NCBI GenBank assembly: GCA_009602725.1
Contig: WELB01000016.1
Location: forward strand, 396,609-460,608
Direction: 5' to 3'
DNA: 64,000 nucleotides
Source: Spirogloea muscicola
Taxonomy: Eukaryota > Streptophyta > Zygnematophyceae > Spirogloeales > Spirogloeaceae
Below are positions 29,992 to 64,000 of this stretch, piece by piece. The notes below the pieces were generated by a model. It was not told the DNA's origin. It saw only the letters and a list, made by a program, of their open reading frames with translations, and ran no database searches. Both the position numbers and the translations under genes were made by a program. Every line of letters begins with the position of its first letter. The first letter of the stretch is position 1.

Positions 29992-32746
29992 ATGGCGGGC
30001 CATGCCTGGCGGCTCCCAGCCGCGCTCGTCGTCGTCGCTGCAGTCCTCGCCTCCACGACCGCGACTGCCGCCGCCACCGACGGCGCCGGTGGCCGTGAGG
30101 AGGGGCCCCTGTCTCTGGTTGAGGATGCCGTCGGCCAGGCTGAGGGCTCGCAGCGGTCCACCCGCGAGTGGGCTTCCCAGGTGAGGCAGAGCCACTCCAT
30201 TGCTGGCGAGCCCGAGGCGTCGGCACAAACTTTTCAGTGGCTTGGGACTTCCCCGTGGTGCCCAGTTTGCGGCTTTCACAGTGTCCAAGCTGGGCCACCG
30301 CTAGCTGTGGCTGACACAGTCCTTCCTGCTGCCCGAGCACATCCCCAGGTGGTGACGTTCGCGCGACGGATGCAACGCACGCTCTTGCAACATGCGCCGG
30401 TGGACATACCCAACAACCTCGACGAGGTGGACGTCGATGGAGCTGGCAGCGGTAGCAGCAGGGGCAGTGGCGTCCCGCCATCCCGCAGCAGCTACGCAGC
30501 CACGCTCTTCGAGCAGGCGCTGGCCGCCAGTAGCGCAGCGGCAGCGCCATCGCCGCCGCCGCCAGAGAAGATAGACTATCACCACAACCCGGCGGAGAAA
30601 GAGGCCATCCGGCGAGCCGCCAAGCTCGCGCGGTGGCGGCGACACCACGCTTCGTCGGGGGTGCACATTCCCGCACCACACAAGATGGCCATCGACCTGC
30701 GTGCAGTGATCGATGACGGCGACGCAGGGTACAGCGAGCTTGCGAAGGACGCGCACTTCATCCATGTGGCCCAGGACGGTAGCGGAGACGTAATGACCGT
30801 CCAGGGTGCCATTGACATGGTCCCCAAGGGCAACCTGCGGCGGCACATCATCAAGGTCAAGGACGGCATCTACATTGAGGAGATCCTTGTGCCAAAGTCG
30901 AAGCGCTTTGTCACGCTCAAGTAAGTTTGCTGGATGTTTTGTGACTGTTCCCGTGCCAATCCTCGATGTTGCCCATGTGATCATAGTTGTTGAGGTTGGG
31001 ACTTTGCTTGGTGCAGGGGCCAGTCCACGGCGGGCACAATCGTGCTGATGATGCACAACGCAGGGCAGTGGCTCGATTCATTAAATAGAACCCGCGGAAC
31101 GTACCGCTCAGCCAGCGTCACCATCCTTGGTGCTGGCTTCCTTGCATACAACATCACCTTCATGAACAATGCCACGCGGTCAGCTCTCACCTCTTGCTAT
31201 GACCTCCACATGGGCAGCTTGTGGCCGTGGCCCACGCTACACCCAAGAACGATTGCCATGACGGAAGAACAGGCATCTCACAAAGCAACCCGTACAAACA
31301 GTGGAAGATAACTGCTAGTAAACCATGTTAGTGTGCTGCCAGTTTCTTGCCTATTTTGGGCTCGCAAGGTGGCGGCCAGCCTGCCTCGTTCAATGCTTTG
31401 CAGAGGTCTAAGAGGTGGATTGTAATGCTCCCGCTTCTTAGCTGCTCATGTCGACTCATTGGCACTCGCTGTTGCAGACCGCCACCCACTTACTATTTTG
31501 GGCAGGCGCCAGCAGTGCGAGTATCAGCGACCAGTGTGGCCTTCTTCGGTGTACGCTTTGTGAGCTGGCAGGACACGCTGTACGCTCACAAAGGCAAGCA
31601 GTATTATAGGTGAGAGGCCTACTGTTCTCCTTTCTCCCCCATATCACTATGCTGCGTGGCGCTTGGACTCAACTGGCGTGCGCGCTCCTTGTGCTCAAGG
31701 CGACTGAGCAAGGCTGCGGGTGCGGCGCCTCACGTGCAGGGACTGCGAGGTGGTGGGCTCCGTTGACTTCATCTTTGGCAATGCGACGGCGCTATTCGAG
31801 CGCTGCGTGCTGCACGCTAAAGGCATGGGCAACATTGTCGCACAAAAGCGCGGGTGGTACAGTGACCCGACAGGCTTCGTCTTCCTCAACTGCGCGATCG
31901 TCGGCGAGGGCCCTACATACCTCGGCCGCCCTTGGGGCAACTTCTCACGCGTCGTCTACATAAACACACGGATTGCCGGCATCCTCGGCCCTGGGGTGAG
32001 CCACTCTCGCACCACTGAAGTGATCAGCTCTTGAAACACAGGTAGCAGTCTGGCCTAAGTGCTTGATCTGATGATGATGTGATTTGCTTATTCACCTCCA
32101 CCATGCTGCACAGGCGTGGCTGGACTGGGGCAACGACACATCACGGCGGCCGACCGCCTACTTTGCGGAGTACGAGTCGACTGGCCCTGGTGCAAATCAC
32201 GTGCTATTCCCTCGAGCCGCCTGGACGCACACGCTGGACGCCCATGGCGTAGCGCCCTACAACAATCGCGACTACATCCTGGACGCCAATCAGAGCCTGC
32301 CGCTGCCGCCACTGCCTGCGGGCTTCCGACTGTCGCCGCCGCCGCCGCCGTCGCCACCGCCGGCCCCCCCAGCACCTTCACCACCCCCGCCCTCCCCTCC
32401 TCCGCCACCTGCCATTCTTCCCCCGCTCTCAAATCCTCCTCCACAATCGCTGCCGCCTCCACCACCTTTACCTTCGCTGCCCCCGCCACCGCCACCGCCA
32501 CCACCGCCACCGCCGCCGTTGCTGGACGTCACACTACTTCTCCAATCTCCTCCGCCATCGCCGCCTCCACCGTCACCCCCCCCGCTTCTCCCACCTTCGC
32601 CAGACCCAGCGCTCCTTGCAGCCGCTGGCCTGCCGCCGCCTCCTCCTTCGCCACCACCTCCCTCACCGCCCCTCACCGCACTGCCCCCCGACCTCCTGCT
32701 CGCTCAGCCACCCCCGCCTCCGCCGCCTCCGCCGCCAGTCATGTGA
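29992..32746 (+). CDS. Pectin methylesterase with C-terminal proline-rich (extensin-like) domain
   Basis: Exons 29992-30920, 31017-31178, 31478-31609, 31740-31995 and 32114-32746 (TGA) join in phase to 703 residues. I chose ATG 29992 because it opens a clean signal peptide (MAGHAWRLPAALVVVAAVLA). The catalytic domain carries KDGIYIEEI, GQAPAVRVSA, WQDTLYAHKGKQYYR (Q395, D396), GSVDFIFGNA (D417) and YLGRPWG (R471), so the PME active-site set is complete. It would de-esterify homogalacturonan in the wall. Residues 568-703 are almost all Pro/Ser with long proline runs, like hydroxyproline-rich wall glycoproteins; plant PMEs usually carry an N-terminal inhibitor-like domain instead. 30181-30351 (171 bases, gtgagg...ccag) may be a phase-preserving intron, which would give 646 residues. 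A downstream exon near 32905 could extend the tail. Confidence 0.9.
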
Positions 32747-37127: not shown

Positions 37128-37375
37128 GCGGCTGCTGATATCAAAAAGGCGGCTGTAAACGCCAGCCAGGTGGCTGTAAACGCCGGCCAGGCGCATAAAG
37201 AGGGTGCTCATCACTATGGCAGCGGAGCCACAGGCCAGGCAGACAGGGCACAGAGAAAGGGAAGAAACGAAAGAAGTGGCACTCCCAATGGGGGCAAGGG
37301 CTGTGAAAAGCCAGCCCGAAAAAGAATTGACAAAGGTTCGAAGGGGCCAAATGGTGGAGGGGCCTAAGAAATGAA
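37128..37375 (+). repeat. Repeat families B and A in tandem
   Basis: 37128-37255 is family B, with its 'ggctgtaaacgcc.gccagg' unit doubled and then 'ggagccacaggccaggcaga'. 37283-37375 is a good family A copy nearly identical to those at 1.3 and 28.8 kb through 'aaaagaattgacaaaggttc'. Confidence 0.75.
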
Positions 37376-38171: not shown

Positions 38172-39677
38172 TTAGACTGCATACGCATTCTGGCCGGAGG
38201 AGGCTGATGACGCTGCACTTTTCAGCGCGGCAGCCATCATCTGCTCCAGCGCAGCCTCGTGGCCTTGATCTGCAGCAGCCTGGTACCACCGCATCGCCTC
38301 CCTCATCTCGTGCTGCATGGCCACCACGCCGCGCTTGGCCAGGCCCAGGCCCTGCTCATGGCACAGCCCGAGGCAGTACTGCGCTTCCGCGTCGCCCTGT
38401 TCTGCCGCAGCGCGATACCATGACATTGCCACGCCCCAGTCCTGCGCCACGCCCTTGCCAGTTGCGTGGCACATGCCCAGGTTGAGCTGAGCAGCAGCCA
38501 GGCCCTGCTCTGCAGCACGCTGGTACCAGCTTGTGGCTGCAACCATGTCCACCTCACATCCCTTGCCCTCGTCGTAGCATGCGCCCAGCTTGTTTTGCGC
38601 CACTGCGACGCCCTGCTCCGCTGCCGCCCGATACCACTCCACTGCCTCAACCTCATCGCGCTCGCACCCGCGGCCTGACGCCAAGCACGCTCCCAGGTTG
38701 CACTGCGCCATAGCACAGCCCTGTGCCGCTGACAGCCGGTACCACTGCACCGCTGTTACAGCATCCTTGGGCACGCCGCGGCCTCGCTCGTAGCTCGCGC
38801 CTAGATTGAACTGCGCATACATGTGGCCAGCCTCGGCTGCGCAGTGGTACCACACTGCAGCCTGCTCCGGGCTCGCCTCCACACCACGCCCGTGCTTGTA
38901 GCACACCCCCAGATTGTAAGCTGCGCCGCTCTGGCCCTGCTCGGCAGCCTTGCGGTAAAGCTCCGTGGCACGCAAGAGGTCCTTCTTGACGCCCTTGCCC
39001 TCATAATAGCAGTCCCCGAGGCGATACTGTGACTCTGCGTGGCCGCGCGCCGTGCTCGCCTGCAACAGCCGTATGCCCTCGGCGTGGTCTTCAGGCACGC
39101 CCTAGCCCAGGAAGAATTTCAGCGCCAGCTGGCACTCTGCATCCAGGTTCCCGAGGGCCGCAGCGGCACGCAGCCACCTCACAGACTCGGCCCAGTCGCA
39201 GCAGAGCATGGCGAGGCAGACCATGGCCGGGGCGTTGCCTTGCTCAGCGGCTGCACGGTACCACCGCAAGGCCTCGGTGGCGTCCTGCGCCACGCCGCGG
39301 CCGTGCTCCAGCGATGCGCCAAGGTTGAACTGCGCCTGCGCGATGCCCTGCTCCGCAGCTCTCCGGTGCCATGCCGCAGCTTCGCCTGCGTCTGGCACTA
39401 CACCCTCGCCAAGCTCATAGAGCACGCCCAGATTGCACTGCGCCTTTGCATGCCCACCCTCTGCCGCTCGGCGGTACCACGCTGCCGCTTTGCAAGGGTC
39501 TGCAGCGACTCCGCGACCCCGCTCGTAGCAGAGCCCGAGGTCATATTGGTCCTGGGCCACTCCACGCTCTGCGCCCTCCCGGTACGCCTGCAGCGCGTCC
39601 GTCGTCTCAACGTATATGGCCGAGTTGCCCGTGTTGCTGGGCAGGCTGTTGGGTCGGTCCTTCGGGCTCAGCGGCAT
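38172..39677 (-). CDS. Sel1-repeat protein interrupted by one in-frame TAG
   Basis: From ATG 39677 the minus strand encodes about 191 residues with four Sel1-like repeats, then a TAG at 39104-39102. The same frame continues without shift to a stop at 38172 for about 309 more residues with seven or eight further repeats (YDLGLCYERGRGV, YNLGVCYKHGRGV, NKLGACYDEGKGC and similar, each followed by an A.WY..AAEQG helix). The TAG falls in the fifth repeat at the variable position of the 'G.GV' loop (KFFLG-stop-GVPEDHAEG), so repeat register is kept. Sel1-like repeats form alpha-solenoids that scaffold protein complexes. The gene may be a young pseudogene, may be read through, or the base may be a sequencing error. 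An acceptor-like 'ttggcag' lies just before the ATG, so an upstream exon is possible. Confidence 0.85.
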
Positions 39678-39967: not shown

Positions 39968-42900
39968 CACTTCATCTAGATGCCCGGGATCCTTGCGCTC
40001 GCTGGACCGGCTTCTGAGCACAGCCTCGAGGTATATGGGTAGCAGGGCCGGGGCATGTCGCTCCAGGTGGTCGGCCACAACTCCTGACATGCCATTATGC
40101 GGGAGGCTATGAGAGTATCAGACCAAAGAAAAGGAGGAGGAAAGTAAAAGATCCATGCTTGTAGTTCTGGAAGTCATGGGCTACGAAAAGAAGTGGCTAT
40201 ACTGTTATTCAGCAGTGCAGGGCATGTCAACGGCTAGCGTATTTCAAGGTAGGCGTTCAGGGTCAGGGGCCAGATCAGACCTGAGGCGATGGCGGGCTTT
40301 GTACTTCGGAGAAGGTTGAGTGCCAGCTGGGGGTGCTCGGTAAGGAGCCACGTGGAGGACTCCAGCACCAGCTCCTGCTCCGCGGGGCCAAGCTTGCGAA
40401 GGTATGTCACAATAGCCTGCACTGCGGCATCGCCGTCCGCGTGGCTGCTCTCCGCAGCTGACTCACGTAGCACGGCCAGCGCCCGCTTGTGCAAGCCGCG
40501 ACTCCAAAAGAGCGGCACGAGTAAGTCGCGCCGCCCTGCCGAGACGAGCGCGGCCTCGCTCACAGCTGCATCGCAGAAGTTCTGGCCCCGCAGGAGGTGC
40601 TCAGTGGCAGGTGTCCCCCCACCTTCGCCATCAAGCTTCAGGTGCACCTGCAGCAGCGCCGTATCCAGTAGAGTAGCCGCCGCAGCCGCCGTGCCGCCTC
40701 CGCCCAGCTCCTTGGCGCACGCCACTGCTCCTGGCCCATTGTGGTCAGCAGCGGCTGGCACTGGGACTGCTCCAGCCCTGTCCGCAGCCTGTGCCACTGC
40801 CTCTGCAGCCTCCAGCACCGTCAGCCGCTTCTGGAGGAGGTAGCTCCTTAAGGCTTGCAGCGCTTGCTGGGGGCTACTTGCCCCATCGTCACCATTGGCT
40901 CGGCAACCACCAATAGCATTGTCGCTAACCGATGCGCCACCCAAAGCGGCTAGTAGTGACCCGGGCAAGCGCAGCACCGGCACAGTGGAGGGGTCGCCGA
41001 CGCCATCGTCGTTCTGGGCAGGCTGCACTTGACAAATGTCGGGGTAGAGCGCAAGCACCGCAGAAAGGTCTGGCAATGAGGAGGCCAACTGCGCCAGTGC
41101 CTCTGTGTAGTCGCCCTTGCGAAAAAGATACTGCCCAAAGCTGCAGTAATGGCCCCGCAATCCAGCGTGCTTCTCAGAGCGGTGCAAAAGACAGGATGTG
41201 TAAAGGCAACTGGCACATACTACGACAAGCTGCGCAGCAACTGATCTGATCCTTGGTCGACGATAGATCGAAGGTAAGGTTTCAGCCATGTTAGATAGCC
41301 AGGTTTGGTTGCCTGATTCAAATTTTGGTAGCCTGAATCTGAGCTGAAAACGGGGAAGCACCGGGCCCTTAATAGCACTTGGCAGGCAAGCTGCAATTCA
41401 AGCAAGCAGGGCACCTGGCGTGGACATGCGCCTCTGCTCGAGGCCGCTCCTCGAGCGGCAGATGCTTGCACAGCGACAATGCTTCCTCGTAATTGTTCGA
41501 TGCCTCCAGCTGCTCGACCTGCGGCCGTCGCCGGGGCGGGAGCAGGGTGGGGGCGCGCTTGCCCCCCTCAGCGACAGCCATTGAGCAGCGGATAAGCGAA
41601 GCCAGCATCAGCCCAATATCATCCACTCTGATCCATGTTAGCAGCTGCAGGAGTGTATAATAGACCCTTCATTACATTAATATGTATATGAGTTGACCCC
41701 ATATCTCTTTATCTTTTGTCACCTGCTGCTCGAGAGGCACCAGCGTGAGTAGGTGGACATCCGCGGAGCTGCTGGCAAGGACTGCACCCGTAGCGCTGTC
41801 AACGGCGAGGAGCCGCAGGCCGTCGGCCACCACCAGCGTCTGGACGAGAGGGAAGGGCGGCTCCAGCAGCCTGACCTGGCACAGCGCAAGGCCCCCCGTG
41901 AGGAGTGGCGATACTGCCGCCCGCAAATAGAACATGGGAAGTGCCACGACGCGACCTCCCACGGGGCTCGACGTCACCATGGCAGCCACGGCCGATGCAA
42001 GCGCCATCGTGCTGGGCTCGGCAACTTCGGTTCGGCAAGTGGAGGCATGTAGCCTCACCTCCACGGTGCCCGAATGGAGGAGGCCGACGGCGTACGGTGG
42101 CGACACCGTCACTGCAATGGGTGCCTCCTGCCACTCAAGCCGCTCCCCACTCTCCGCACGTCCGTCCACGCTGAGCACTACCCCTGCAACGTCCTGTGCA
42201 GCCGCAGCAACAGCACCCGCCATCGAAGCCATCAGCTTCTCACCGCCACACCTCGACAGGCATTGCTGACTGGCGCCTGCAGAAGGTGCTGCGCTGAACC
42301 TGCTGCAGCAGCACGCCGCTCCCACTCCCCAGCGGTACAGCCAGGCAGGGCACCGGCCGGCTGCAGGGCGCGGCGTCGACGATGACGGAGCCGTCGTCGG
42401 CGTCCATCAGCACGTACTTGCTGCCCAGGCCAAGGCAGAGCGAGCGCGGGCCGCACCATGCCGCGGCCTGCACGGGTCCGGGCGCGCGCTGCTCATGGAA
42501 GTCCGTGAAGCGCCTTCCGCTGCCTGCCAGGGGCGGCACGCAAGGTGCGTCGTTGGCGGCTCAGAGTATAGATCCGGGGTTTTGGCAAGCGATTCCGGAG
42601 CTTGGGCTGTGGCAGCTCTCACTGTGGCCGGCGCGGCGAGTGAGGGCTCTCACAGTCGAGCTTGTAGAGGAGCAGGCGGCGGTCCTTGACGACGCACAGG
42701 CGGCCGGCGTGGCCGTCCCAGGCGTACATGTACGCGCCGCGTGTCTCATCGAGCTGCTCCGCGGCGGCCTCCAGGCCCGGGAGGGCGTGCAGCCCGACGC
42801 CGTCAGCCAAGTGCAGGAGCAGGCCGTCGGGGTCCACCACGTCCAGCTGCACGACGGCCTTGGTCGCGAAGCCCGTGACGTTATGGCAGGCAGCCGCCGA

Positions 42901-43904: not shown

Positions 43905-46900
43905 CGGGGCTGCGCCGCCGCCGCCGTACGTGCTGCTGGAGACGCGGGCGGGCTTCGGGCGGCGCTCCGTTGCGCAGCTGGACGTCGTGCAGGCGCGCGG
44001 CCTGCTGCTGCACCTCTCCGACGGCGTGGCGCTGCACTCGCTGCCCGGCCTGGAGCCCCTGGCGGCGCCGCCGCGCACGCGCGGCGCCGCCGTCTACACC
44101 TGGCACGCGTCCTCCGGCGCGCTGGCCGTCGCCGGCCCCCGCCGCCGCCTCCTCATCTACCGCCTCGACGGTGCGCCATTCGCCCCGCCGTTCACTGAGC
44201 GCTGGCCGCTGTCGTCGTCGTCGGATCCTGGTCCTTGCTGCGGGGGCCTGTTGCAGCCATGGCGGCCTGCTGCCTAAACCCTTTAAGCCCTCTTGCTCCG
44301 CTGCCGGCATGCGCTTGGACAGCCGCGCTCCGTCTCGAGCTCCCTGTTTGGGCACCGAGCGCCTGGCACGGCTGTGCCGGGCGACGGCTGCAGAAGCGGA
44401 GCTGCCAATTGTCTCGCGAGAGTCTTATTGCCACCTACCGCCGTGCTGATCGCGACTTTCAGCTGTTCCTTTCGGCTTTAGGATCTGGAGCTTAATTATT
44501 GGCATTGGTTGGCTGTGTAGCGCGAGTTATCAGCTGCTTTTACTGTATGAGATTTGTCAACACATCACAGAAAGTGTGCGCACCCCGGCGTCCAGGCGTG
44601 AGCCGGCAGCTGCACGAGGTGAAGGACATGGCTGCACCCGACGTGGTGAAGGCGCTCGCGTGGGCCGGCCCGGCTGCGGAGCGCCTCTGCCTGGCCATCC
44701 GACGCGAGTACGTGATCCTCGACGTGCACACGGGCACTGTGTCCAACATCTTTCCCTCTGGCTACACCGCTTCGCCGCTGATCGTGCACGCTGGCGGCAA
44801 TCTCCTGCTTGGCAAGGTTGGGCCGGGGCTCCGCACCCAGCGGCCCCTATCTACCTGCACTGGTGCATGCATCAGTGTCAAGGTGTTCTGTACTACCATG
44901 ACTATTTGATGGGCCAGTTGCTAGCTCACTTCAGATCTCTTCATGTTATCAGCTGCAAGGTCTGCTCTAGAGGACTAGCGATAGTGGTGATCACTTATTA
45001 GAATGTTTTACTATCGATGTACCGCTTCAGTTGTATAATTTACCCAGGCAGAATCCTTGTAGAAACACTTCGAGAGGTTTTCTTGGTTTTACTTGAGTTG
45101 CTGCTTTCAGCTCAGGCCTGGCTGCATACTTGCAGGACAGTATTAGCGTGCTCGTGGACTGGCGGGGCAGGCCAATTGGCCACGGAGGTCTGAGTTGGTC
45201 TGAGGCGCCGCTGGCTGTTGCGGTGGTCGAGCCATACGCCCTCGGCCTTCTCTCGCGCTTTATCGAAGTATGTCTCGCGGATGCAGGAGTCTGTCATCAA
45301 CGTCAATCTTGGCACCATCTTGTTTAATCTGACATATCAATTTAGATACATGCTGTCATAAAATGCATCTGTAGTCTTGGTGGACTCGACTGAGGAGCTT
45401 TGGAACAGTCCGCAGCCTGCGTACGCCGACTCGTCCTCCTCCCCTGCCAACTTTGCTGCCGCAGACCACTAGCTCCGGCGATGACAAGCGTACTCGCCGG
45501 CGGCCTCCTTGGCCAGGTCCGCAGCCTGGACCCTCCACATGCCCTCGTCCAGACCCTGGCTGTGAGGGGCGTCACTGTGCTGGCGGCCAATGAAGCTGGC
45601 GTCCTGGCTGCCTCCGAGTCCACCATCTGGCGGCTGCTGCCGGTGCCGTTGGGCTTGCAGGTGAGCTTGCCCTCGACTAATATTGCAGACAGGATATGTA
45701 CGACATTAGTGCGGCGTGAGATAATTGCGAATTCAGGAGTCAATTTCAGGCAGCATTGAGTAATCAGGAGCATCTTGCTACGTGGCTTGAGCCTGAGAGG
45801 TGTCAAGACCACGAGCGCACAAATTGCGGCAGCATACTGAGAGTGTGCAGTGGAGCTAGTTGACCCTCTTCCTTCGGCTTCGCCAGGTGAGCCAGCTGGC
45901 AGGCCTGGGGAAGTTTGAGGAAGCGCTGGCCCTCTGCCAGCGCCTCCCTCCCGAGGATGCTGCGCTGAGGGCTTCAGAAGAGGACTCCATCCACAAGAGG
46001 TGCAGTCTTTGGAGAACTACTGGCTGCACGTTGGCTCGGACTGCTCAGTCTGTCTACTTTTTGAGCTGTAATCTAGAGTTTCATCCTTTAGAGACTTACA
46101 GAATGAAACACAGCCTAAACACTGGCTTGACAGTCGGACGGTATGCAAGTGATTGTCTCAGTGTTACATTCTGGGTGTTGTGATATGCAGGTACGGACAG
46201 CAACTCTTCCAGCAGGGCGATTTCGTAGCGGCCATGGAGCAGTATGATGCGTCCTCCATGGACCTCGTCTCCCTTCTCTCCCTCTTCCCCTCCCTCATCC
46301 TCCCTCGCAGAGCCCTCGCGGTCCTCGGAGCTGCCCAAGCTTTCAAAGGGCAGGCTAGCGGAGGGCACGAGCAAGCATCTGTTGGCGCGTCGGGCTTGTC
46401 CCCTGCCAGCACCAGGCGAGCGCTGCTGGCCCTTGCCGGGAGCCTCAAGCGGCGGCGGAGGGCGGTTGTCGAGAGGGTCGAGGCGGAGGAGACGTCACAG
46501 ATGATCAAGGAGGTGCTAGAAGGTGGCCAAGGCAAGTCACAGAGTAGCTCGATGGGCCTCAACTTGGAGGCTGGCGCGACAGCAGAGGGGCCCTCCATCG
46601 CCAGAGCCACTGCAATAGTCCTTGACACAGCATTGCTCCAAGTCCTTCTGGAGACGGAGGTCGACACGGCGTCAGCGGCCTCTTTTCTGCACGCCCCATA
46701 CTACTGCGACGTAGAGACTTGCCGGAGCTTCTTGGAGGCCAGAGGTGGCGGCAGACAGCTGCTGGTGCAGCTGTATAAAGACAACGGGCTGCACCAAGAA
46801 GCGTTGCAGCTGCTGCACGACCAAGTGGAGGGCGCCGCCACAACCGAGCAGCTGACGGCCTTACTGGACTACCTCAAGGTGAACCTCTCCTTGCACAAAG

Positions 46901-49540
46901 TTGTCATGGACATAACAGAAGCTATAATCTTTAAGCTAGATCCTGTTGGACCTCTGTAAGCTTTGTGTTGCGGCTGTTCTAGACTTAGATGTAGCACCAG
47001 TTGTGCCATACTGAAGCTACAGAGGCCACGAAGGAATTTCTTATGTGGTACCACTTGTAGGATTGACCGATTGACAGGGACTGGGGCCGGCTGCCCGGGA
47101 CGTGCTTGTTGGCAACCTGGCTTGGCTGCTACAAGAGCATCCTGAGCAAGGTTTCTCCCTGCTGACATCCATACGTCCACCCCTGCCTCCAGGTACAATA
47201 TTAAGGTTATCCTGCAGTAAGGGTGCTTCATGCCTTGATTTACACTTGATGATCAGTAGTGCTTGGAGTCATCATAGGTCCTGCTTATATTACGGCTGCA
47301 TGGAATCATAGCACTTGCCATGGCAACATGGCGCAAATTGCCCAAAACAGCACAATTTGTGATTCTGACAAGATGTGGACAAGATGTCTGATTTGGTTGT
47401 AGTTGCTTGTGAAAGTTGCCTGTCTCTGGATCTGCCCTTACATAATCGAGTCATTTGTGGCAGACATTGCGTTGCAGAAATTAAAGCAATTTGCCCCCCA
47501 GTTGCAGTCCTCTTACCTGGAGGCAGTCCTGGTTGGCAGCAGTGCGAATGGAGTTGGTACTCCACAGCGAGAGCTCCAAACCAGACTTGTAAGCAGTACA
47601 CCATTTCAATATAGCTCTTTTGAGCAGAAGCTCTTACCATTTTGGATTTGTTCATCATGCACAGAAGGCCAGTCAAAGCAGGATGACAAAAGACACCATA
47701 AATTTTAGCGAAGTTCATCCCACATACTCAACATCTGTCACGAGCCTGCAGATTCAAGACTTCTTTTTACGCAAGGAAATGGCAACAGGTTGCACTCATT
47801 ACGTCAGCTCTTGACTACTGCAGATCCTCCTTCACCTGAAGGCTGTGCTGCGGGAGGCCACTCGGGGAGACAGCTCCTCTGACAGGAGTACAATGAGTGA
47901 TGCTCGCAAGAAGCTTGTAGCAGCTCTGAGTGGCCCTCCTTTTTTGTATGAAGCTTTATCTATCCTCCCTCACTTCCCAAAGAACAAGCTCTTCCTGGAA
48001 AGGTCACTGATTTTCGCAGCCCTTCAGCAACATTTTGTGGTGCTCGTCATCCTTGCCAGAAAGGTGCGAAGTGGGTCCAATCACAAGGAATGAGTGAGAC
48101 TGTGATCGTGGCATTTTGATATATATTGGGCTCATATGGAGCAGGGCATTCTTAGGTGTTATGAACGGTTGTCCTGATGTATGTTGTGCTGATCAGGAGC
48201 AGGGCCTCAGAGGAAGTTCTTGAGCTGTTATTGTTGGCTGACCAGAACAAGGTGTAGATATCTTCCAGATTGCTAATCATGCCCCCTGCAAGATCCTTGC
48301 TGATCAAGCTCCACTCCTTGTCCTGCAATAGCTGGAGGACTTTGAGAGGGCGGTGGCCTATTGCGATCAGGTTCCTATGAGGGAGGACCCAAGAAAGCCA
48401 CAGCTTGTTTCTTGGCCAGTGGACGATGTCGAATTCCCAGGGCACAATTTTCATATGATGCTGCTCAAGATCTACATTCAGCCGGCATCAGCCTTGACGG
48501 AGTGTGACAGAATTGTAGACGGCATCATGGAAGCAGTTGTTGGACAAACGCGGTCTGAGAATCGAAGGATGGAGGATGTACAACAGGGCTTTATGGATAG
48601 TGACAAGACTCTCAAAGAGGTGGAGCCAAGAGCCAGGACACTGCATGTGGAGCCCAGTAAAGGTGAAGCCTTTAGCGACAGGCTGAGTAGCGAGGAGGAG
48701 GTGGTGGGGGCTAATGAGGACGTGGGCAATGATTTGACTTCTGGCAAGACATTTAGAGGAGACGTCATGCTGGAAGAGGCATTGAGGCTCCTTGACAGGA
48801 GATGGAGTGCACTGAACTTGTTGATGGCCTTGGCTGCACTGCCTGGGGAGGTTAAGTTACAGGTAAGATGGCCAGCCCAAACGTTGCAAAGTCTTGGGGT
48901 TACTGTTTGCATTGGCAGAAATCTGTGTACATGGACTGCACTTGTCTCAGTACTTGAGAGTGTTAAGTCAACTGATCTTACTACTATCATCGTCTTTTGT
49001 GATCATCATGTATGCAAGTGAGCTCGAGGAAGTTGTCGCGGTTTCCCCTTACATGTTTCAATTTTATGTTGCAGCGGCTGTTGGCATTCCTGCAGCCAAA
49101 GCTTTTGAAAGATGGAGACACCCGCCACAACTCAGCTGTGGTGAAAGGACTACGCCGAACTGACAACTTGCAGGCACGGTTGCAATAATCGCAAACAATC
49201 AGCAGTCATTTGACATGCACTTGATTGGTAGATGTACCTAGAATCCTTGATGTATGTTGCCTCTGACTGTTGGTTACTGGAGAGACGTTGTTGTGCTACT
49301 TTGACGGCTTGAGGGCATGATGATCTTGTCGGAAGGAGCCGCAAGAACTGATCCCTGGTCCTGACTCGTTTGGACCAGGTGAGAAGTCAAGTGCTGCAAC
49401 TTCAGAGGCGCTTCGTGCTCTTGACTGAGGACTCCACCTGTGACGTTTGTCACAAGAGGATTGGCCTCAGTGCCTTTGCAGTGTCATTGGGAGGGGCACT
49501 GGTCCACTTCGTGTGCTCACAAGCGCAGCTTAGTGGCTGA
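43905..49540 (+). CDS. VPS39: VPS39-like HOPS subunit, copy B, 5' incomplete
   Basis: Exons in phase: 43905-44170 (5' cut), 44596-44816, 45136-45267, 45409-45660, 45887-45999, 46191-46878, 47078-47192, 47464-47588, 47824-48063, 48332-48862, 49075-49173 and 49379-49540 (TGA), about 980 residues. Blocks: CNH domain (LLLHLSDGVALHSLPGLEPL, RREYVILDVHTGTV, SEAPLAVAVVEPYALGLL), FEEALALCQRLPPED, QQLFQQGDFVAAMEQY, LLSLFPSLILP, VLDTALLQVLLETE, YYCDVETC, NGLHQEALQLLHDQVE, DFERAVAYCDQVP, and the C-terminal zinc-binding end CDVCHKRIGLSAFAV...VHFVC. This is the full VPS39/Vam6 domain order; LSLFPSLILP favours VPS39 over VPS3. It tethers vacuolar membranes through Rab7 and the HOPS complex. Six intron positions match copy A in place and phase. 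The intron after 49173 has a GC donor. An alternative last exon at about 49790 (DSQELLQERSSRTP) is possible. Confidence 0.92.
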
Positions 49541-55899: not shown

Positions 55900-56860
55900 C
55901 AGGTGCTCCGGCGGCGGCGGCGGCGGCGGCGCGGGCGGGAAGGATTCCAAGATCTTTGACCGGCCGCTGCCTTGACCGGCCGAGTGAGGAGGGGGGCCGG
56001 CTGGGCCTCCCGGTCCGGCCCTTAACCTCCCGTCAAGGGAGCGAGCCCGCCGACCAGCCGGCCCGGGCCTGTTATTTAGCTGTCGGGGCGGGAGGGGGTG
56101 AGTTAGCGCAAGGGCGCAAACGGTTGGCGGAGGCGGCAAGGCCGGGCCTTGGGCCCACCAACCGCAGGGGCTCCCTGGCGGGGCCCCTGGGGCGGGCACC
56201 TGGGCGCGGCACGCAACAGAGAGGTGGGGGGCGCTGCTGGGGCGGGTCTCGGCTGCTGTGGCTCCCCCGGAGGAGGGAGGCAGGGAGGGAGGGAGGGAGG
56301 AAGGGAGGAAGGAGGCGCTGAAGGCCAGAGAGGCGCGCGGCAGAGGCAGGTCGAGGTCGAGGGGTCGACGCGGGAGAGAGCGCAGAGCTCGAGAGGGGGG
56401 GAGGAGAGAGGGATGGAGCGAGCTAGCGTGTGAGGAGGCGGAGACGAAAGGAAGAGGGAGGGGAGGAGGTGGGTGGGGTGGAGACGGAGAGGTAGAGCAC
56501 CGGAGGGACGAGCACTGACTTGACACTGCCGAGTGGGGGACAGGGTGGTGACGAGGGGCCCTTTGAGCTGCCGGCCCGCTGCGGCGCCACCGATGCCGTC
56601 CACTCCACGACGCCAGGCTACGGTGCCGGCGTAGAAGCGTGAAGCGCGAGCAAGGCCTTAGTGAAGGCGGGGGGTGCTTTGAGCCGCTTGTCTGGCCAGG
56701 TTGGCCCGGTGTTGGAGCTTGGACCGCCAGGGGAGGTGGCAAGATCACCAGGGGCTTCTGCAAGCAGTGAGGACACGGAGACAGTAGGGGATCGAGGGAG
56801 CAGGAAGGGAGAGAGGGTGGAGGGAGGGAGGGAGGGAGGGNAGCAGCCAGGCATTGCCGT
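55900..56860. other. GC- and GA-rich stretch with (ggga)n runs
   Basis: Contains cggcgg repeats at 55905-55932, purine-rich gagggag sequence from 56260 to 56500 and a (gga/ggga) run at 56815-56840 ending at the N. The long minus-strand open frame across it is proline/serine-rich low-complexity sequence, which I do not call as a gene. Confidence 0.5.
56841..56841. other. Unresolved base (N) at a ggga microsatellite
   Basis: It directly follows an agggagggaggg run; the true repeat length is unknown. Confidence 0.8.
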
Positions 56861-57036
56861 TGACTGCTGAGCACGGGCCAAGCCAGCAGCTGCCTGAGAT
56901 CCTGCCAGCGCAGCAGGTGGGACTGCCCAAGAGCAGTGGGCGGTCACTAGGCGCAGCGCCAGTTTGGCACCAGTTGGCGAGTTGCAGCACCCAATACTTG
57001 CCAGATGCAGCGGCACAGCAGGCAAGGCCTCGCTGC

Positions 57037-58943
57037 TCAAAGTGCATTGTGCCAGAGCCAGTCCATGAGCACAGGCAGTTCATCTACGGCCTCGACCAGC
57101 TGGCGCTCGTGCGCACGCTCCTCCTCCGCGGCCGCTGCCGCCGCCGCCACAGCAGCCGCCACAGAGCCCAGTGGTGGGGCCTGCGTTAACCGCTGGCCTG
57201 GTGGACCCTCTTTGGCCAGCTGCCAAAATCCACAGCCACTGTCAGATCACATGCCGTTTCACTTAAGCCCTCAACACACATAACCAAGTCAATGGCCTAT
57301 TTACTGTCAATCTTGAGGCTGGAGGCTGCCAAGTCACCTGGAAGATGCTGGCCCAGCTGCGTGCGGCAACCTCGGCCTCAAAAGTGAGCCGCCCAGTGCC
57401 TGCGCGCAACTCTGCGCCGCTCACTTCCTGCAGCTGCCACGTGCGTGCAGCGCCGACAATACGGCACCCCTGGTGCCGCCGCACCCCGCGCACTGTAAAG
57501 GGCCCCCTTCCGACGGTGGCGCCGTCGCCCGCGCTGGTGCCCGCGCCACCATAGTCCACGCCAAAGTCGCTTGGCCACGCCAGGCCGCCCAGCGCGCTGG
57601 CATCAGGCACCGCGCCCGCCACTATCGCTTCCATCGCCGCCCTCTCATCATCCTGCCACCGACCCAACCGAAACAGTAACGTCGCACTGAGCTCATGATG
57701 TTGGCAGCAAGAGAGCTGCTGGCAAAGAAGACCCCCAGCTCGTCCCAAAGGCGCCTAGATGGACTTTACAGCTGCTGGCTCATCGGCAAAAGTGCGCTGG
57801 CTCCCATTGCAAGGGCTTTGGCACACCTTTGTGAGCTACTTTGAAGTTAATGAAATCCATGGAGAATAAGGACCTAGTGTTAGAAGGTCATAATCCTGCA
57901 ACTAAGGCTGGGACACGGGAATGCACCACGATGTTGTCGAGCACAAGCTCAGTGCGGAGGCTCAGCCGCAGGTCGCTGTGGCGACCGACGCACGCCACGT
58001 CCACCACCATGTGTCGCAGCGGCTCCACTTTGACCTGCCGGCCCCCACCCCAACCGCTCGCACTTTACTCTCAATGGTGCTGTCATCAACAGAGGGCCCT
58101 TGCCTTGGTGATCCAATGCAGCTGGCCTTAAGTGCAATGCCAGCCTGGCTACGCAGCGCCGAGGAGGGCTGCAGGGAAAGGCAAGGTTGCCGATGGCAGT
58201 GGCAATGATACCTGCTGGAGGGTTAGGCGTGGCGTTCCACTGCTGCCGCTAAGGGAGGCGCCGCTGCCACCGTCGTCGAGGCCGCAGACAAGCTTCAGCA
58301 GGCAGCGGTCGGGCCGCGTGGCATCCTCCAACTGCAGCAACAGCAATGCTTATGCTTAAGACTAACATTCACAGAGAAGGAGATCAGCACAACCACATGA
58401 GCCCATTACGATGACAAGTCAAGAGACGGCAGGTGCTTGCCTGGATGACATAGCGGTCCTCGCGCTCGACAACAGCGCCCGCTTCAGAAAGCGCGAGCGT
58501 GCGGAGGCGAGCAAAGAAGTCGGCGGGCAGGCTGGTCTCGAGTGTGGGGAAGAGGGGCTGCTGGCTGCCTCCGCCGTGACCACGGCCGCTGTTGCGGCCG
58601 CCGCTGCCGCCCGCACGCAACTCCTGCTCCAGTCGATACGCTGGGAAAGGCCCCATCGCCTGCAGCCGCTCCCTGCATTCGGAGCCGACGCGGCCAAAGC
58701 GGCACCCTGAGGTCACACCGCAGCTCACAGCAAAGATGGGTCGCGACGGCAGAGGCGTAGAGTGCGAAGGTGGACCAGCAGCGCGGCGGCCGGGCCCACG
58801 CAGCGGCGGCGGCCTCACCGGTAATCCTCGGAGGTGTAGAAGAGGAGACGGCCGAAGCGCACGAGCAGCGTGGTCTGGACGGCCTCGTTGGGACGGCGGC
58901 CGGCGGCTGCCGCCAGGTACGCGCGCACGTTGTCCAGCCACCG
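57037..58943 (-). CDS. Multi-exon protein of unknown function
   Basis: Minus-strand exons 58706-58441, 58331-58212, 58034-57927, 57652-57338 and 57180-57037 (TGA) join in phase for 316 residues. Blocks include ECRERLQAMGPFPAYRLEQE, LPADFFARLRTLALSEAGAV, RYVIQ-LEDATRPDRCLLKL, VEPLRHMVVDVACVGRHSDL, LGGLAWPSDFGVDYGG, and an end EEERAHERQLVEAVDELPVL. The first listed intron has a GC donor (58440). Upstream, 58943-58819 reads DNVRAYLAAAAGRRPNEAVQ and TTLLVRFGRLLFYTSEDYR before a GTGAGG donor and is surely an exon of the same gene, but its phase differs by one base from the next exon, so a micro-exon, another splice site or a base error lies between. I do not recognise the family and see no signal peptide or membrane segment. 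The gene is head-to-head with the GH16 gene. Confidence 0.7.
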
Positions 58944-61531
58944 CCACCGCCACCGCCCAGGCCGCCGCCGCCTCCACCACCGCCACCGCGACCGCCGCCG
59001 CCGCCGCCACCGCCGTCACCGCCACCGACACCACCTCCTCCGCCGCCTCCTCGACCACCATCATTTCCTCCTCCGCCGCCGCCAAAGCCCCCTCCACCAC
59101 CATCGCCACCGCCGCCTCCGCCTCCTCCTCCACCACTGCCACCACCATTCGTCCTGCCACCGCCACCGCCGCCGCCTCCACCTCCTCCTCCATCCCCCCC
59201 TCCTCCTCCCTTCCCCCCACCCCCACCTTACAATATTCCGCCGCCACCGTCGCCGCCCCCACCTCCCCCCTCGCCTGCACCGCCACTGGCCCCACCCCCA
59301 CCGCCTGCCCCGCCGACCACTGCGAGCATCTTCGACTCAGGGGGGCCTCTCACCCAGATCACGCCTGCGTACAGCGCAAGCCACTGTCAGATCATCGGCA
59401 ACAATGTGACAATCACATATGACATTCAGGGCGGTAAGATTCGCTTGTTGATTACCTAAGTTGGCCCCAGAGTAACAGACTTGCTGCTGTCCTTCTCTGT
59501 ACCTAGTCACTTGTTCGCTTGCTTGTCAGATTCTGTTTTGGCCCAAGGTTAACAAGGGACAACCTTTTGCTGAGGTCTATCACCTGAGCCTTTGCAATTC
59601 ATTGGACTAGCAGGCTCAAGGTGGATGTCATCAAGTTTATACACCTCTGGTGTATTTCAGACAGTCTTGCAGTGTGCAGCAGGAGATACGACCGGCCTTG
59701 ACACGACATTTTATGTAAGTACCGAGCTTCATTGTTGCAGAGCTTAGACTCTCCTGATTCAAGAAGGCCGGACTGCTCTCCAAATGTAGATCAGCCTGCA
59801 TCTAATCAGTGTACGTTTGTTTGTTACTTGCAGCTCGATTCAAATGGTGGCCCTACCGCAGACCACGACGGGATCAACTTTGACTTCCTCGGCAACTCCA
59901 AAACTTCGGTGCTCACGTCGTGGTACTCCAATGGCGTTGGCTCGCTGCTCAGTGTGCAGCTGCCATTCGACTGCAGCACCGCTCCCCACTTGTACACAAT
60001 CTACTGGGACACCACCCGCATAGCGTGAGTTTGCTGGCGTGGCCCCTCTGACATTCACAGTGACTGTGACTTTGTCCTTGTCCGAGTGGAGCTTCATCTC
60101 CCAAGCCGACAAGCTCCCACCAACCTTTGAGACATGCACTTGCGCGCTTGCAGTTGGTACATAGATGAGGTCCTTGTCCGCAACGTCCCAAACCCAGGGA
60201 CGGGCATGTTTCCAAGCAAGCCCATGTACCTATTCGGCTCTATCTGGGATGCCTCCACGTCCACCCTCCCAGCTGGCATTTACACTGGTCAGACACTGCC
60301 ACCTACTTTCACGACTCCTCCAAGCCCCCTATTTGTACATCACCTCTGCATCAACTCTGTCATGGCAGCAGCCTCCTGCCTCATCCTGCTGTTTTTTCTG
60401 GGTATTCGCCAGCAGTGATAAATGAGGACAGGTTTCACTGACTATGACACACTTCTCTCAGGTATTGGAAACCCCTTCGCGGCCACATACACGTTCCTGG
60501 CTGTGCAGACACCAGTGGGCCCTGGCACAGTGCCGAGCCCGCCGCCCCCTCCACTTCCTCCAGTGCCGGACATCCCCTCTGAGCCCCTGCAGGGCATTCC
60601 CCTAGTTCCCCTTACTACGGACTACTGTGCTGACCACGCTAGCATTGTCGACAACAATGTAGTCATCACCTTCGACCACAGTTGTGGTAAGCTCGTCACC
60701 TGCGCTGACTTTACAAGGTGCTACGTCTTTCAGGGCACTTCTGCAGGTGCTTATGAGCCTCTTTTGCGTCGCAGGCTCCCGATTCCGCTCCACTGTCCAG
60801 TACCCCAGCGGCGCATTCCGTGCAAATATAAAGTGCCCCGATGGTGACTTTAGCGGCCTCGTTCCCAGCTTCTACGTAAGCTCTTCTTGCTAAAATTTCT
60901 TTGTCACAAACCCCCGGATCCTCTGCTTGGCCACTGCACCAGCTAGCTTTTGTTATATCAAATGATTCATGGGTTCTTCAGAATATACTGAGCTTCTGCC
61001 CTCGCCGTGCTTGGCCAGCTATCATCCCTCGAAGGCTCTGGCAATCAGGACGAGATCGACTTTGAATGGCTTGGCAAGGACAAGACTGTTGTACAGACCA
61101 ATTATTACGTCAACGGCGTCGGGGGCCGGGAGGTTCTTATCCACCTCGGATTTGACTGCTCCGCGGCCTTCCATGAATATACTATTCTATGGGACACATA
61201 TCGCATTGTGTAAGTTTCTTCCAACTCTTGTACTTTCACCTCTCTCCAGAATTAGTGCCTCAATACTTGGCCTCTGCAGATAGCATCACCTGACAGGAAG
61301 TGCATAATGTGCTGCTCGCAAAACAGATGGTACATCGACGGCGTCATTGTGCGCGTGGCCCCAAATATAGTTGGCCAGCCTTTTCCGGTTAAGCCGTCCT
61401 TCCTGTATGCCTCCGTCTGGGATGCCTCTAGCATCTGCGGTGGCTGCTGGGCCGGCATCAACACCTGGTCATTGCCGGCGTACTACATGCAGTACCAAAA
61501 CATCACAATCCAGAGTCCCGTTGCACTCTGA
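58932..61531 (+). CDS. Tandem GH16 (XTH/CRH-type) protein with proline-rich N-terminal region
   Basis: Exons (?)-59433, 59614-59714, 59834-60024, 60154-60287, 60462-60686, 60775-60875, 61019-61209 and 61327-61531 (TGA) join in phase. The first holds ~130 residues of Pro-rich sequence, then the start of GH16 domain 1. Domain 1 reads GGSRWMSSSLYTSGVF, GLDTTFYLQLDSN, HDGINFDFLGN and WYIDEVLVRNV. A Pro-rich linker in exon 5 leads to domain 2: GSRFRSTVQYPSGAF, NQDEIDFEWLGKD, YYVNGVGGREVLIHL and WYIDGVIVRV. The corresponding exons are 101 and 191 bases in both domains, so the gene arose by internal duplication. Domain 2 keeps the E-I-D-F-E catalytic core; domain 1 has G-I-N-F-D at the same place and should be inactive. 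The family remodels xyloglucan or beta-glucan in walls. The 5' end is unclear: no ATG precedes the proline region, which overlaps the minus-strand gene's 5' exon. Confidence 0.88.
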
Positions 61532-62724
61532 TGGCTGCTCAAGTCACCAAGTCCTTGCACAAGGTGCAGCGGGTTGCCTTTCTTCATTGATCTTATGAGT
61601 CCTCAAAGCTGGGCCTTGCTAGAGCCTGTGACTGGCCAACTTGTCACTTGCTCTACCTTGCCCCAGCATGCGTTGCTTCATTTATGGACTTGAGGCTGGG
61701 CCTGTGCGCGCGCGCAGCAACAAGCACACAGCCTAGATAACTTACAGTGCTCTCTTGTAAAAGTAGACGTTGGTACCTGCCAACGGAACGTGTTTGTCAC
61801 CCTCTGCCAATGAGACGGCTGCTATCTGGTGCAGACAGTCAGCACGACTGCTGCAGGCCACCATTTGCTGTGCTGGAGAGGGTCTGCTGAGATCTAGTTC
61901 CCTGGCCTGTAGAAGGCTCACGCAAGTGGGCTCGGGCAAGATATGTTATTGACCTTGTCTCATAGCATGCATTATGTAGCAGATGGAGCTTGCACATAGA
62001 GCTGCTCTGATCAGCTACCTGTGTATGCCATCACCGAGACACTTTATCCACTATTATTTCCTTACTGATTTACTTTTGGGATGAGAGAGCATTGCGAGGT
62101 GGGCATATACATGTTCAATCTCAATCATTCAAGATCTGCGCATGTGGGCTGCTATTTGTACACCCTCTAGGAGACCAATCCTACTGTGCACTGTGGACAT
62201 TTACGGGCGGCTGCGGTAAGACATGGTCCTCTCTCCTCCAACAGCTGGTTGACGCGCATCGTCACAGTTGGCGGGCCCGGCTTGCAACACACTAGCTACC
62301 CACAGGTGTTAGTTGCATGTCACAGAATGCAGTTTAATTAGTGGGCTGGGTCGTGCTCTATGGTAGGCCACTGGCTTACGTGGGGGTAGTGCACTCCCCA
62401 AGTTAGCCTGTCGCGCTTGTATGTGGTCACTTGTGGGTTACTAAGTCCTCCTTAAGCCGGCTTTAGCACATTCGTCTTAGTCCCCTGAGCATTGGGCTTC
62501 CCCTTTGTGTAACCCCCATTCCTGCACTAGCATTTGCCTGAGCAGTAAATTGGCTTCAGCTGGCCTCTCTTTCAGTTCATGCGCATCATGCGCCTTCTCT
62601 CGTGTGCATGAATGCGGACTACATAAGAAGAGCCCTTAATTTACTCGCAGGATTGGTGAACAAGGAGACCTGTCTAATATCCTAACTTGCCCACTAGCGA
62701 GGCCGCAATAAGTATAGCAATGTG
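61532..62724. repeat. 3' region of the GH16 gene and inverted family C copy
   Basis: No gene recognised in 61532-62300. About 62330-62615 has the layout of family C in reverse, ending 'ggcctctctttcagttcatg' and 'cgcatcatgcgccttctctc', but is strongly diverged. Confidence 0.5.
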
Positions 62725-64000
62725 CTACTTTTTCCCGCGACCCATGACGGGCTCATAGGCCGTGTAGGGGGTGGGCTTGGCCATCTCCATGCCAGTAAAC
62801 GCAAAGATGAAGAGCGCCGTGTATCCCAGTAAGTACAGAGGCTGGCATCAGTGCAACAAATCAAATCAGACAGATACATCTTGCAAGCAGGTCCACGAAG
62901 GCCAGCACTGAGGGGTCCCAAGGCCTGACGAAGTGCATGTCCAGATTGCAGTCATGGGAAAAAGCAACAGCGCCCTTGAGGAACGTGGAGAGGAGGTTAG
63001 CAGGGAGGGCTACCTCAATGCCGAAGGCAAAGCCTGTGAAGAGACCAGGGAGGAAGAGCCACGATATGGCTCCTGCAAATGGGAGGAGTAGCGGCCATCA
63101 GTAAGTTCCGGTGCTCGATACAAGGTCCTCAGACAAGGTGCATTGCTAAGTCCTGACCCCTCATGTCGTCAATGCTCCTCCACCTCAGCAAACACTGAAC
63201 AGTGAGGTAAGAGTTCCGCAGCTTGGCCAAACACAGCAGGTGCGCGCATGGGGTGTGGCTACCTTGAGCTCCTCTTGGGCCGCCGGCCTCCTTCAGCGAG
63301 GCCTGGAGGTTCTCCCAGAATGTCCCTGAAAGCCCGCTCAGCAGGCGAGGTGAGGAAGATGGGGATTTTTGCAGCACCAAGCTGTCAACGTGAAGCAGCC
63401 ATGACAGCCATTGCCGCATGTTCGTGCAGTGGGCAGCAGAGAGCCCCACCGTCGTCGCCCTCGTGCCAGCTGTGGGCGCCGTCGCCCTTGCCATAGGGGA
63501 AGGTGCCGTCCTGCGACGGCAGGAGCGGAGTCAGACGTACATTAGTGTCGGCCTCAGGAGCCGTTGCACAACAAGAGACAGAGGCCACAATCGTCTACTG
63601 CCAGCGCGCACGGCCATGAGCGCAGCTCTGGTGTGGTCGCCCCAGCAGCTCGCAGCCAAGTGGATCTTCAGAGCACGAAACGGGGTAGGCCTAGAAGGGT
63701 CTCGTGATGCAGCCATCTCAGGGCTTGGGGTTTAGGCAAGCCCTGCTGCCGCGGCCAGCGGCAGCAGGCGCCGGGGCCCCCAGCAGAAGCCCCGTACCTT
63801 TTCAAGGTCCTCGCCGACCGTCGCCCAGACGTCGCGAGGGTCCTCCTCCAGGTCCGGCTCCACTCCCGCCACGCCGTGGCCCGCTCGCGCAGCCTCTCCG
63901 CGGCGCCTTGGCAGCGATGGCCGCCGCAGAGGCGTCGCAGGCCCTTGTGCCGGCCCGGCCGGCAGGCCGCAGCGTGCGGTGGGGCCCGGCCTGGCCGCCG
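62725..64000 (-). CDS. Small two-helix membrane protein, probably plastid, N-terminus off the window
   Basis: Minus-strand exons: 64000-63798 (partial), 63510-63450, 63325-63263, 63072-63014 and 62841-62725 (TAG), all in phase. The first exon is Arg/Ser/Pro-rich, like a transit peptide, then turns acidic (EPDLEEDPRDVWATVGEDLE). Next come PYGKGDGAHSWHEGDDG and TFWENLQASLKEAGGPRGAQ, followed by two hydrophobic helices split by an intron (AISWLFLPGLFTGFAFG and YLLGYTALFIFAFTG), and a hydrophilic tail EMAKPTPYTAYEPVMGRGKK. The 'GGP.GAQG.ISWLFLP' wording and two-helix end remind me of a conserved plant thylakoid protein, possibly an accessory subunit of a photosynthetic complex. I cannot name it with confidence, so no symbol is given. 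Confidence 0.75.

What the first reader, a model, noticed from the sequence alone, without database searches (positions are those of the whole stretch)
58932..61531. Two GH16 domains in one protein, the first catalytically degenerate
Domain 2 keeps DEIDFEW, the nucleophile/assistant/acid-base triad of GH16 transglycosylases. At the aligned position domain 1 has DGINFDF, so all three carboxylates are replaced (E to G, D to N, E to D). The rest of the fold, including WYIDE.LVR, is kept. Matching exon lengths (101 and 191 bases) and phases show it arose by duplication within the gene. A dead enzyme domain kept beside a live one suggests a substrate-binding module derived from an enzyme. I know of no described XTH with this layout.
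Basis: partly seen in the sequence, partly recalled or inferred. Interest (0 to 1): 0.85.

Follow-up and report, generated by a model that had tools for sequence, protein, structure and literature searches.

The report
Dead glucanase domain beside intact one
A green alga, probably from the group closest to land plants, has a gene for a cell-wall enzyme in which a first, disabled copy of the enzyme domain is fused to a second copy with an intact active site; a related gene pair shows the disabled copy strongly preserved, so it probably has a job such as gripping the wall polymer.

Summary
Window 59316-61531 encodes two GH16 domains in one frame through seven GT-AG introns. Domain 2 keeps DEIDFE; domain 1 reads DGINFD. 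Two points change the reading. (1) The domains are EG16-like glucanases, not XTH: the best solved matches are VvEG16 chains and no XET_C is detected. (2) Two other loci of the same genome (C113, C73, about 90% alike in DNA) encode the same tandem, with domain 1 disabled differently (DAITLE, nucleophile E to A) and domain 2 intact. Between them domain 1 has 2 nonsynonymous against 19 synonymous differences (dN/dS 0.026; domain 2 0.063): the dead domain is under purifying selection there. In all three genes one exon encodes the end of domain 1 and the start of domain 2. Exon lengths do not prove within-gene duplication: two XTH genes modelled here share the 101-base exon. The gene's 5' end is not in the window; the assembly looks broken at the poly-proline repeat. 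Likeliest role of domain 1: a glucan-binding module derived from the enzyme. Binding, expression and structure are untested.

The parts
58940..59315 (+). poly-proline (extensin-like) stretch, 101 Pro of 125 residues, in frame with domain 1; true 5' part of the gene not in the window or misassembled
   Evidence: no ATG in frame; 63 bp (58961-59023) 97% identical to C38:151971-152033 and in the same frame
59316..59433 (+). start of domain 1 (end of the first recognised exon, phase 1)
59614..59714 (+). domain 1 exon 1a, 101 bases
59834..60024 (+). domain 1 exon 1b, 191 bases; degenerate motif DGINFDF at 59867-59887
60154..60287 (+). domain 1 exon 1c (WYIDEVLVR ... GSIWDAS); Pro at the place of Trp164 of domain 2
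60462..60686 (+). bridge exon: last strand of domain 1, proline-rich linker (PSPPPPPLPPVP), start of domain 2
   Evidence: same arrangement in C113 and C73
60775..60875 (+). domain 2 exon 2a, 101 bases
61019..61209 (+). domain 2 exon 2b, 191 bases; intact catalytic motif DEIDFEW at 61049-61069
61327..61531 (+). domain 2 exon 2c and stop codon; no XET_C extension detected

Best explanation
A wall protein, probably secreted, of a streptophyte alga: an extensin-like proline-rich part, a catalytically dead EG16-like domain (domain 1), a proline-rich linker, and an EG16-like domain with an intact active site (domain 2). Domain 2 would cut or transfer beta-glucan (mixed-linkage glucan, xyloglucan) by the GH16 retaining mechanism. 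Domain 1 keeps most conserved positions of the domain but, without nucleophile and assistant, should not form the glycosyl-enzyme, and would act as a binding module that holds a glucan chain near domain 2 or anchors the enzyme in the wall. Shown by sequence: the anatomy, the lost triad in domain 1, the intact triad in domain 2, the same layout in two further loci, purifying selection on the dead domain between those two. Inferred: secretion, expression, fold, catalysis by domain 2, glucan binding by domain 1. The binding role is better supported for C113/C73, whose domain 1 keeps both highly conserved Trp (154 and 164 of domain 2 numbering), than for the window gene, whose domain 1 lost Trp164 and has a longer branch.
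For: Both domains match VvEG16 chains best (domain 1 E 1.8e-35, domain 2 E 3.3e-54). Triad intact in 72 of 72 comparison domains; nucleophile and assistant lost in 3 of 3 first domains (DGINFD once, DAITLE twice) and intact in 3 of 3 second domains. The window's domain 1 keeps 15 of 16 highly conserved non-catalytic columns. C113 against C73: domain 1 dN/dS 0.026, 2 nonsynonymous differences seen where about 69 would be expected at the synonymous rate. The nucleophile E-to-A change of C113/C73 is also seen between PDB chains 5sv8 and 5dze at that position. Precedent: GH16_4 holds noncatalytic binding proteins with mutated catalytic residues (PMC6827312, passages).
Against: No binding, expression or structure data. 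The window's domain 1 has a branch about three times that of its domain 2 (1.13 vs 0.35), as relaxed constraint would also give. Of 31 columns invariant in the 9 VvEG16/own-genome rows the window's domain 1 differs at 8 and C113 domain 1 at 7, among them Gln85 and Asn87 (window) and Tyr89 and Gly94 (C113) of domain 2 numbering, so the cleft has changed beyond the triad. No homoeolog of the window gene was found for a selection test. Constraint alone does not say what the domain does, and C113/C73 selection is for their own domain 1, not the window's.
Confidence: 0.58

Rival explanations
1. Domain 1 is a non-binding structural or regulatory part: a scaffold, spacer, dimer interface or cover limiting access to the cleft of domain 2, kept for stability and not for sugar binding.
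For: The dead domain of C113/C73 is constrained, which a structural role would also give; first domains changed residues beyond the triad (8 and 7 of 31 invariant columns).
Against: C113/C73 domain 1 keeps both highly conserved Trp; a proline-rich linker between the domains suggests loosely tethered modules.
Confidence: 0.23
2. In the window gene domain 1 (or the whole gene) is drifting: a leftover of the ancestral tandem that lost its function in this copy only, while C113/C73 keep it.
For: Long branch of the window's domain 1; only one copy found, its counterparts on C38 and C14 would lie in assembly gaps; 5' end not intact in the assembly.
Against: Open frame over the exons, 7 of 7 introns GT-AG, 15 of 16 highly conserved non-catalytic columns kept.
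Confidence: 0.14
3. Domain 1 is active by another chemistry (a relocated nucleophile, or glycosynthase-like use of an activated donor).
For: C113/C73 keep the acid/base Glu with the nucleophile changed to Ala, the pattern of engineered glycosynthases (recalled).
Against: The assistant Asp is lost too; no activated sugar donor is known to me in walls (recalled); the window gene changed all three carboxylates.
Confidence: 0.05

Closest known systems
Plant EG16 endoglucanases (VvEG16; PDB 5dze, 5dzf, 5dzg, and 5sv8, which is deposited as 'probable xyloglucan endotransglucosylase/hydrolase protein 19')
   Same: best PDB matches of both domains; domain 2 has the same EIDFE core; no XET_C detected
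   Different: the matched chains are single domains of 207-209 aa; here a second, dead domain, a proline-rich linker and a poly-proline N-terminal part
XTH (GH16_20)
   Same: same Pfam family; 101-base exon and intron phases shared with XTH genes C49 and C136 of this genome
   Different: no XET_C detected; domain 2 is 34-35% identical to XTH C49/C136 against 50% to VvEG16
GH16_4 noncatalytic binding proteins (beta-glucan recognition proteins; name recalled)
   Same: GH16 domains that lost catalytic residues and are described as binding proteins (PMC6827312, passages)
   Different: animal and fungal GH16_4; here EG16-like and fused to a domain with an intact triad. I did not compare the sequences
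RfGH16_21 of Ruminococcus flavefaciens
   Same: several GH16 domains in tandem in one protein (PMC12484212, one passage)
   Different: bacterial, three domains with a dockerin; the passage mentions no dead domain

Membership tests
EG16 | closer to VvEG16 than to XTH or bacterial licheninases | tested here: met
   PDB search, domain 2: 5sv8 E 3.3e-54, 2uwb 2.6e-31, XET 1umz 6.4e-26, glucanase 1mac 2.6e-24; domain 1: 5sv8 1.8e-35, 2uwb 1.1e-23, 1umz 2.1e-15
EG16 | catalytic EXDXE motif: domain 2 | tested here: met
   DEIDFEW at 61049-61069
EG16 | catalytic EXDXE motif: domain 1 | tested here: not met
   DGINFDF at 59867-59887; domain 1 is EG16-derived by sequence, not an EG16 enzyme
EG16 | broad endo-beta-glucanase activity | not testable with these tools
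   needs an assay
XTH (GH16_20) | C-terminal XET_C extension | tested here: not met
   domain 2 ends at 61531 and Pfam finds only PF00722 at E up to 1. The control is weak: XTH C49 shows XET_C at 15.2 bits, under its cut-off of 31.3
GH16 pseudoenzyme or binding domain | loss of catalytic carboxylates in a recognisable GH16 domain | tested here: met
   3 of 3 first domains lost nucleophile and assistant; PF00722 at 6.5e-32 for the window's domain 1
GH16 pseudoenzyme or binding domain | binds glucan without cutting it | not testable with these tools
   needs binding assays
GH16_4 noncatalytic binding proteins | sequence membership in GH16_4 | not tested
   no GH16_4 sequence was compared

The most novel reading that the evidence does not exclude
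An ancient pseudo-EG16/EG16 tandem in streptophyte algae: the first domain lost its catalytic residues before the gene family split and became a new carbohydrate-binding module made from a GH16 enzyme; in one branch it is further joined to a secreted, DUF642-like, proline-rich N-terminal part (seen on homoeologous contig C38, in the same frame up to the poly-proline, then a gap).
Probability: 0.4. Interest if true: 0.65.

Novelty: new variant of a known kind. Interest (0 to 1): 0.5.

Why it matters
EG16 is described as the evolutionary link between bacterial licheninases and the XTH enzymes that remodel land-plant walls (PMC6827312, passages). A dead EG16-like domain kept under purifying selection beside one with an intact active site, in a probable close relative of land plants, would show a binding module being made from this enzyme lineage, and gives a matched pair of domains for testing which residues serve binding and which serve catalysis.

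Tried and rejected
Viral contigs: 33 stretches matched a pattern, none encodes a relative. Bacterial and archaeal genomes: 63 loci, 65 ORFs, one GH16 stretch per ORF, no tandem and no dead copy among them; the scan finds only carriers of its patterns. PF25475 search of the own genome gave nothing, and its control rang nowhere, although one window piece reaches that family's cut-off. Window flanks 57000-58940 and 62700-64000: no homoeolog, only one 46-bp match for the first. tRNA and Rfam scans of the window: none. Papers: none of the listings I saw names a plant or algal tandem or dead GH16 (20 of 30 shown; 12: 12 of 12; 44: 12 of 218; 45: 15 of 28; 52: 10 of 10; 74: 2 of 2; 75: 12 of 344). 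Listings are titles and abstract starts. Passages opened: PMC6827312, PMC9915684, PMC11096116, PMC12484212, PMC9243642, PMC9065682, PMC11547041, PMC5722204, PMC13417130; PMC13417130 speaks of engineered inactive mutants of ordinary XTHs. Three likely papers (Behar 2018; and, by DOIs recalled, Shinohara 2021 and Cheng 2019) are not held. So absence from print is not shown.

Considered and rejected: two separate genes (one exon encodes the end of domain 1 and the start of domain 2 in all three loci); sequencing error in the motif (three in-frame substitutions, and two other loci with a dead first domain); assembly artefact of the tandem itself (C113 and C73 repeat it). Structure prediction was not run: its rule asks for proteins that the DNA gives letter for letter, and these are spliced, so I did not submit them.
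Full report
What is there. The + strand from 59316 to 61531 encodes two GH16 domains in one spliced frame, preceded by an in-frame poly-proline stretch (58940-59315; 101 Pro of 125 residues) and joined by a proline-rich linker. All seven introns are GT-AG. Both domains are recognised by Pfam PF00722 (E 6.5e-32 and 1.2e-43) and are 47% identical over 170 aligned positions. Domain 2 has DEIDFEW; domain 1 has DGINFDF, each of the three catalytic changes being one base.

Family. Against solved structures both domains match VvEG16 chains first: domain 1 E 1.8e-35, domain 2 E 3.3e-54, with the XET 1umz at 6.4e-26. The top chain, 5sv8, is deposited as 'probable xyloglucan endotransglucosylase/hydrolase protein 19'; that it is VvEG16 follows from its near identity to 5dzg ('VvEG16, endo-glucanase') in these outputs, and PMC6827312 names 5DZF and 5DZG as EG16. 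No XET_C extension was found. PMC6827312 (passages) describes EG16 as mixed-function endo-glucanases/endo-xyloglucanases that link bacterial licheninases (GH16_21) and plant XTH (GH16_20), and names the added XET_C as a key feature of GH16_20. So the domains are EG16-like, not XTH.

Not unique in the genome. The window lies on contig C16 of a 153-Mb genome of 471 contigs. Pfam and protein searches show nine loci of this kind: the window gene; C113 and C73; three single EG16-like genes (C325, C209, C244); three XTH-like genes (C39, C49, C136). Only candidates of a first look are scored, so nine is a lower bound, and I modelled exons only in part for the single genes and not at all for C39 (my pattern failed). 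C113 and C73 are about 90% identical in DNA and each splice to a tandem of two GH16 domains: domain 1 DAITLEF, domain 2 DEIDFEF. So 3 of 3 tandem genes have a first domain without nucleophile and assistant and a second domain with an intact triad.

One gene, not two. In the window, C113 and C73 a single exon (225, 190 and 190 bases) encodes the last strand of domain 1, the linker and the first strands of domain 2 (strands by alignment). A transcript that ended between the domains would lack the last strand of domain 1. No transcript data were available.

Selection. C113 against C73 (Nei-Gojobori): domain 1, 19 synonymous and 2 nonsynonymous differences, dN/dS 0.026; domain 2, 23 and 6, dN/dS 0.063; the stretch before domain 1, only 46 codons, 2 and 4, 0.71. 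About 69 nonsynonymous changes would be expected in domain 1 at the synonymous rate (Fisher p about 1e-11). Domains 1 and 2 do not differ significantly (p 0.44). The dead domain of that pair is thus constrained about as much as the other. For the window gene no homoeolog was found (DNA, 40 of 898 candidates scored; protein, 31 of 31 scored), so its own domain 1 could not be tested.

Which residues are lost. In an alignment with 72 comparison domains (63 bacterial, 9 from VvEG16 and this genome) the three carboxylates are invariant. At 19 columns conserved at 90% or more and intact in domain 2, the window's domain 1 differs at four: the three catalytic residues and Trp164 of domain 2. By its place in the alignment I read Trp164 as the +1-subsite Trp described for GH16_20 and GH16_21 in PMC6827312 (inference). 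C113 domain 1 differs at three (E71A, D73T, F74L) and keeps Trp154 and Trp164. On the stricter set of 31 columns invariant in the 9 VvEG16/own rows, the window's domain 1 differs at 8 and C113 domain 1 at 7, so both changed beyond the triad. The bacterial rows were found with patterns fixed on conserved stretches, so their conservation is overstated; the patterns left room for E to G or A, and no such copy came.

How the layout arose. XTH genes C49 and C136 also have a 101-base exon with the same phases, followed by 221 bases. The exon pattern is therefore older than the tandem. In the tree without XTH rows the three first domains group (support 72/8) and the three second domains group (81/78), neither strongly; holding the window's two domains together costs 6.2 log units (p-AU 0.07), holding the four C113/C73 domains together 6.8 (p 0.10), and all six as one clade 1.8 (p 0.25). 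With XTH rows these forks were unresolved. One ancestral tandem is favoured, not proven; the nucleophile may have been lost once or twice.

The 5' end. The open frame holding the poly-proline has no ATG. On the minus strand just upstream lies a gene with a DUF7903 match (57888-58064, 27.5 bits against a cut-off of 26.5); by eye its exons run from about 57263 to 58935 and into the same repeat. Window 29.5-56.84 kb is matched in pieces by two homoeologous contigs, C38 and C14. Their similarity stops at 56839, beside a single N at 56841, and resumes about 11.8 kb on, beyond the window. C38 continues with a signal-peptide-like start (by eye) and a DUF642-like part (PF04862 at 22.5-22.9 bits, under its cut-off of 27) that runs into poly-proline; 63 bp of that are 97% identical to window 58961-59023, in the same frame and at nearly the same distance (2164 vs 2122 bp), then poly-T and a 9.4-kb gap. 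The other poly-proline matches listed are 65-75% identical; still, this is a low-complexity repeat. C14 has a 7.3-kb gap there. So 56842-58940 is probably misjoined or inserted, and the true start of the GH16 gene is unknown. The GH16 part itself is less in doubt, since C113 and C73 repeat its layout.

Organism. Three copies of several segments at about 84-91% DNA identity, adjacent intact psaA and psaB, and PsaA closest to chains two of which I recall as moss photosystem I (8htu, 6l35; one search names no organism) suggest the zygnematophyte Spirogloea muscicola, for which a recent whole-genome triplication is reported (PMC9065682, passage). This is inference; the 18S search failed.

Mechanism. 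GH16 enzymes use Glu-Asp-Glu on one strand (recalled; PMC6827312 for the motif). Without nucleophile and assistant no glycosyl-enzyme should form, but most conserved positions of the domain are kept. The nucleophile E-to-A change of C113/C73 is also seen between PDB chains 5sv8 and 5dze, made, as I recall, to trap bound glucans. The likeliest role is holding or anchoring glucan for domain 2. For the window gene this is less sure, since its domain 1 also lost Trp164, Gln85 and Asn87 of domain 2 numbering.

Known and new. Dead GH16 domains are known: about 9% of GH16_4, 0.7% of GH16_3 and 1% of other GH16 members lost one or both catalytic residues, and GH16_4 includes noncatalytic binding proteins (PMC6827312). 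Tandem GH16 is known in Ruminococcus (PMC12484212). GH16_20 is reported as expanded in Zygnematophyceae (PMC11096116, passages). A dead/intact EG16 pair in the plant lineage was not found in the listings, most of them shown in part; three papers likely to matter were not held. Hence new variant of a known kind.

Noticed in passing
window 56842-58940: Block with a minus-strand DUF7903-like gene sits between a single N after a GGGA microsatellite and the poly-proline repeat, and is not matched by homoeologous contigs C38 or C14 where they are held; probable misjoin or insertion.
   Followed up: partly
L089 (C38:149900-152040): Signal-peptide-like start, DUF642-like part (below cut-off) and poly-proline in frame, at the place homoeologous to the window's GH16 gene; no second copy found by DNA search.
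   Followed up: partly
window 29500-56839: Matched in pieces by two homoeologous contigs, C38 and C14, mostly at about 80-92% identity: a triplicated genome.
   Followed up: partly
window 37269-37370: Repeat of about 100 bp found on 28 other contigs at 94-99% identity among the candidates scored (40 of 2574), so a lower bound: a young dispersed element.
   Followed up: no
window 40234-41397 (-) and 46153-46959 (+): Two open reading frames with Vps39_1 matches, head to head on opposite strands.
   Followed up: no
window 60288-60418: If intron 60288-60461 were kept, domain 1 would end in a hydrophobic tail (AAASCLILLFFLGIRQQ, stop) that resembles a membrane-anchor signal; perhaps chance.
   Followed up: no
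window 30760-30918 (+): Pectinesterase match (PF01095, profile positions 2-54), another wall enzyme.
   Followed up: no
window 38172-39101 (-): Reading frame with Sel1 repeats.
   Followed up: no
G000:C16 from 460609: The assembly has a 4.6-kb run of N directly after the end of the window.
   Followed up: no
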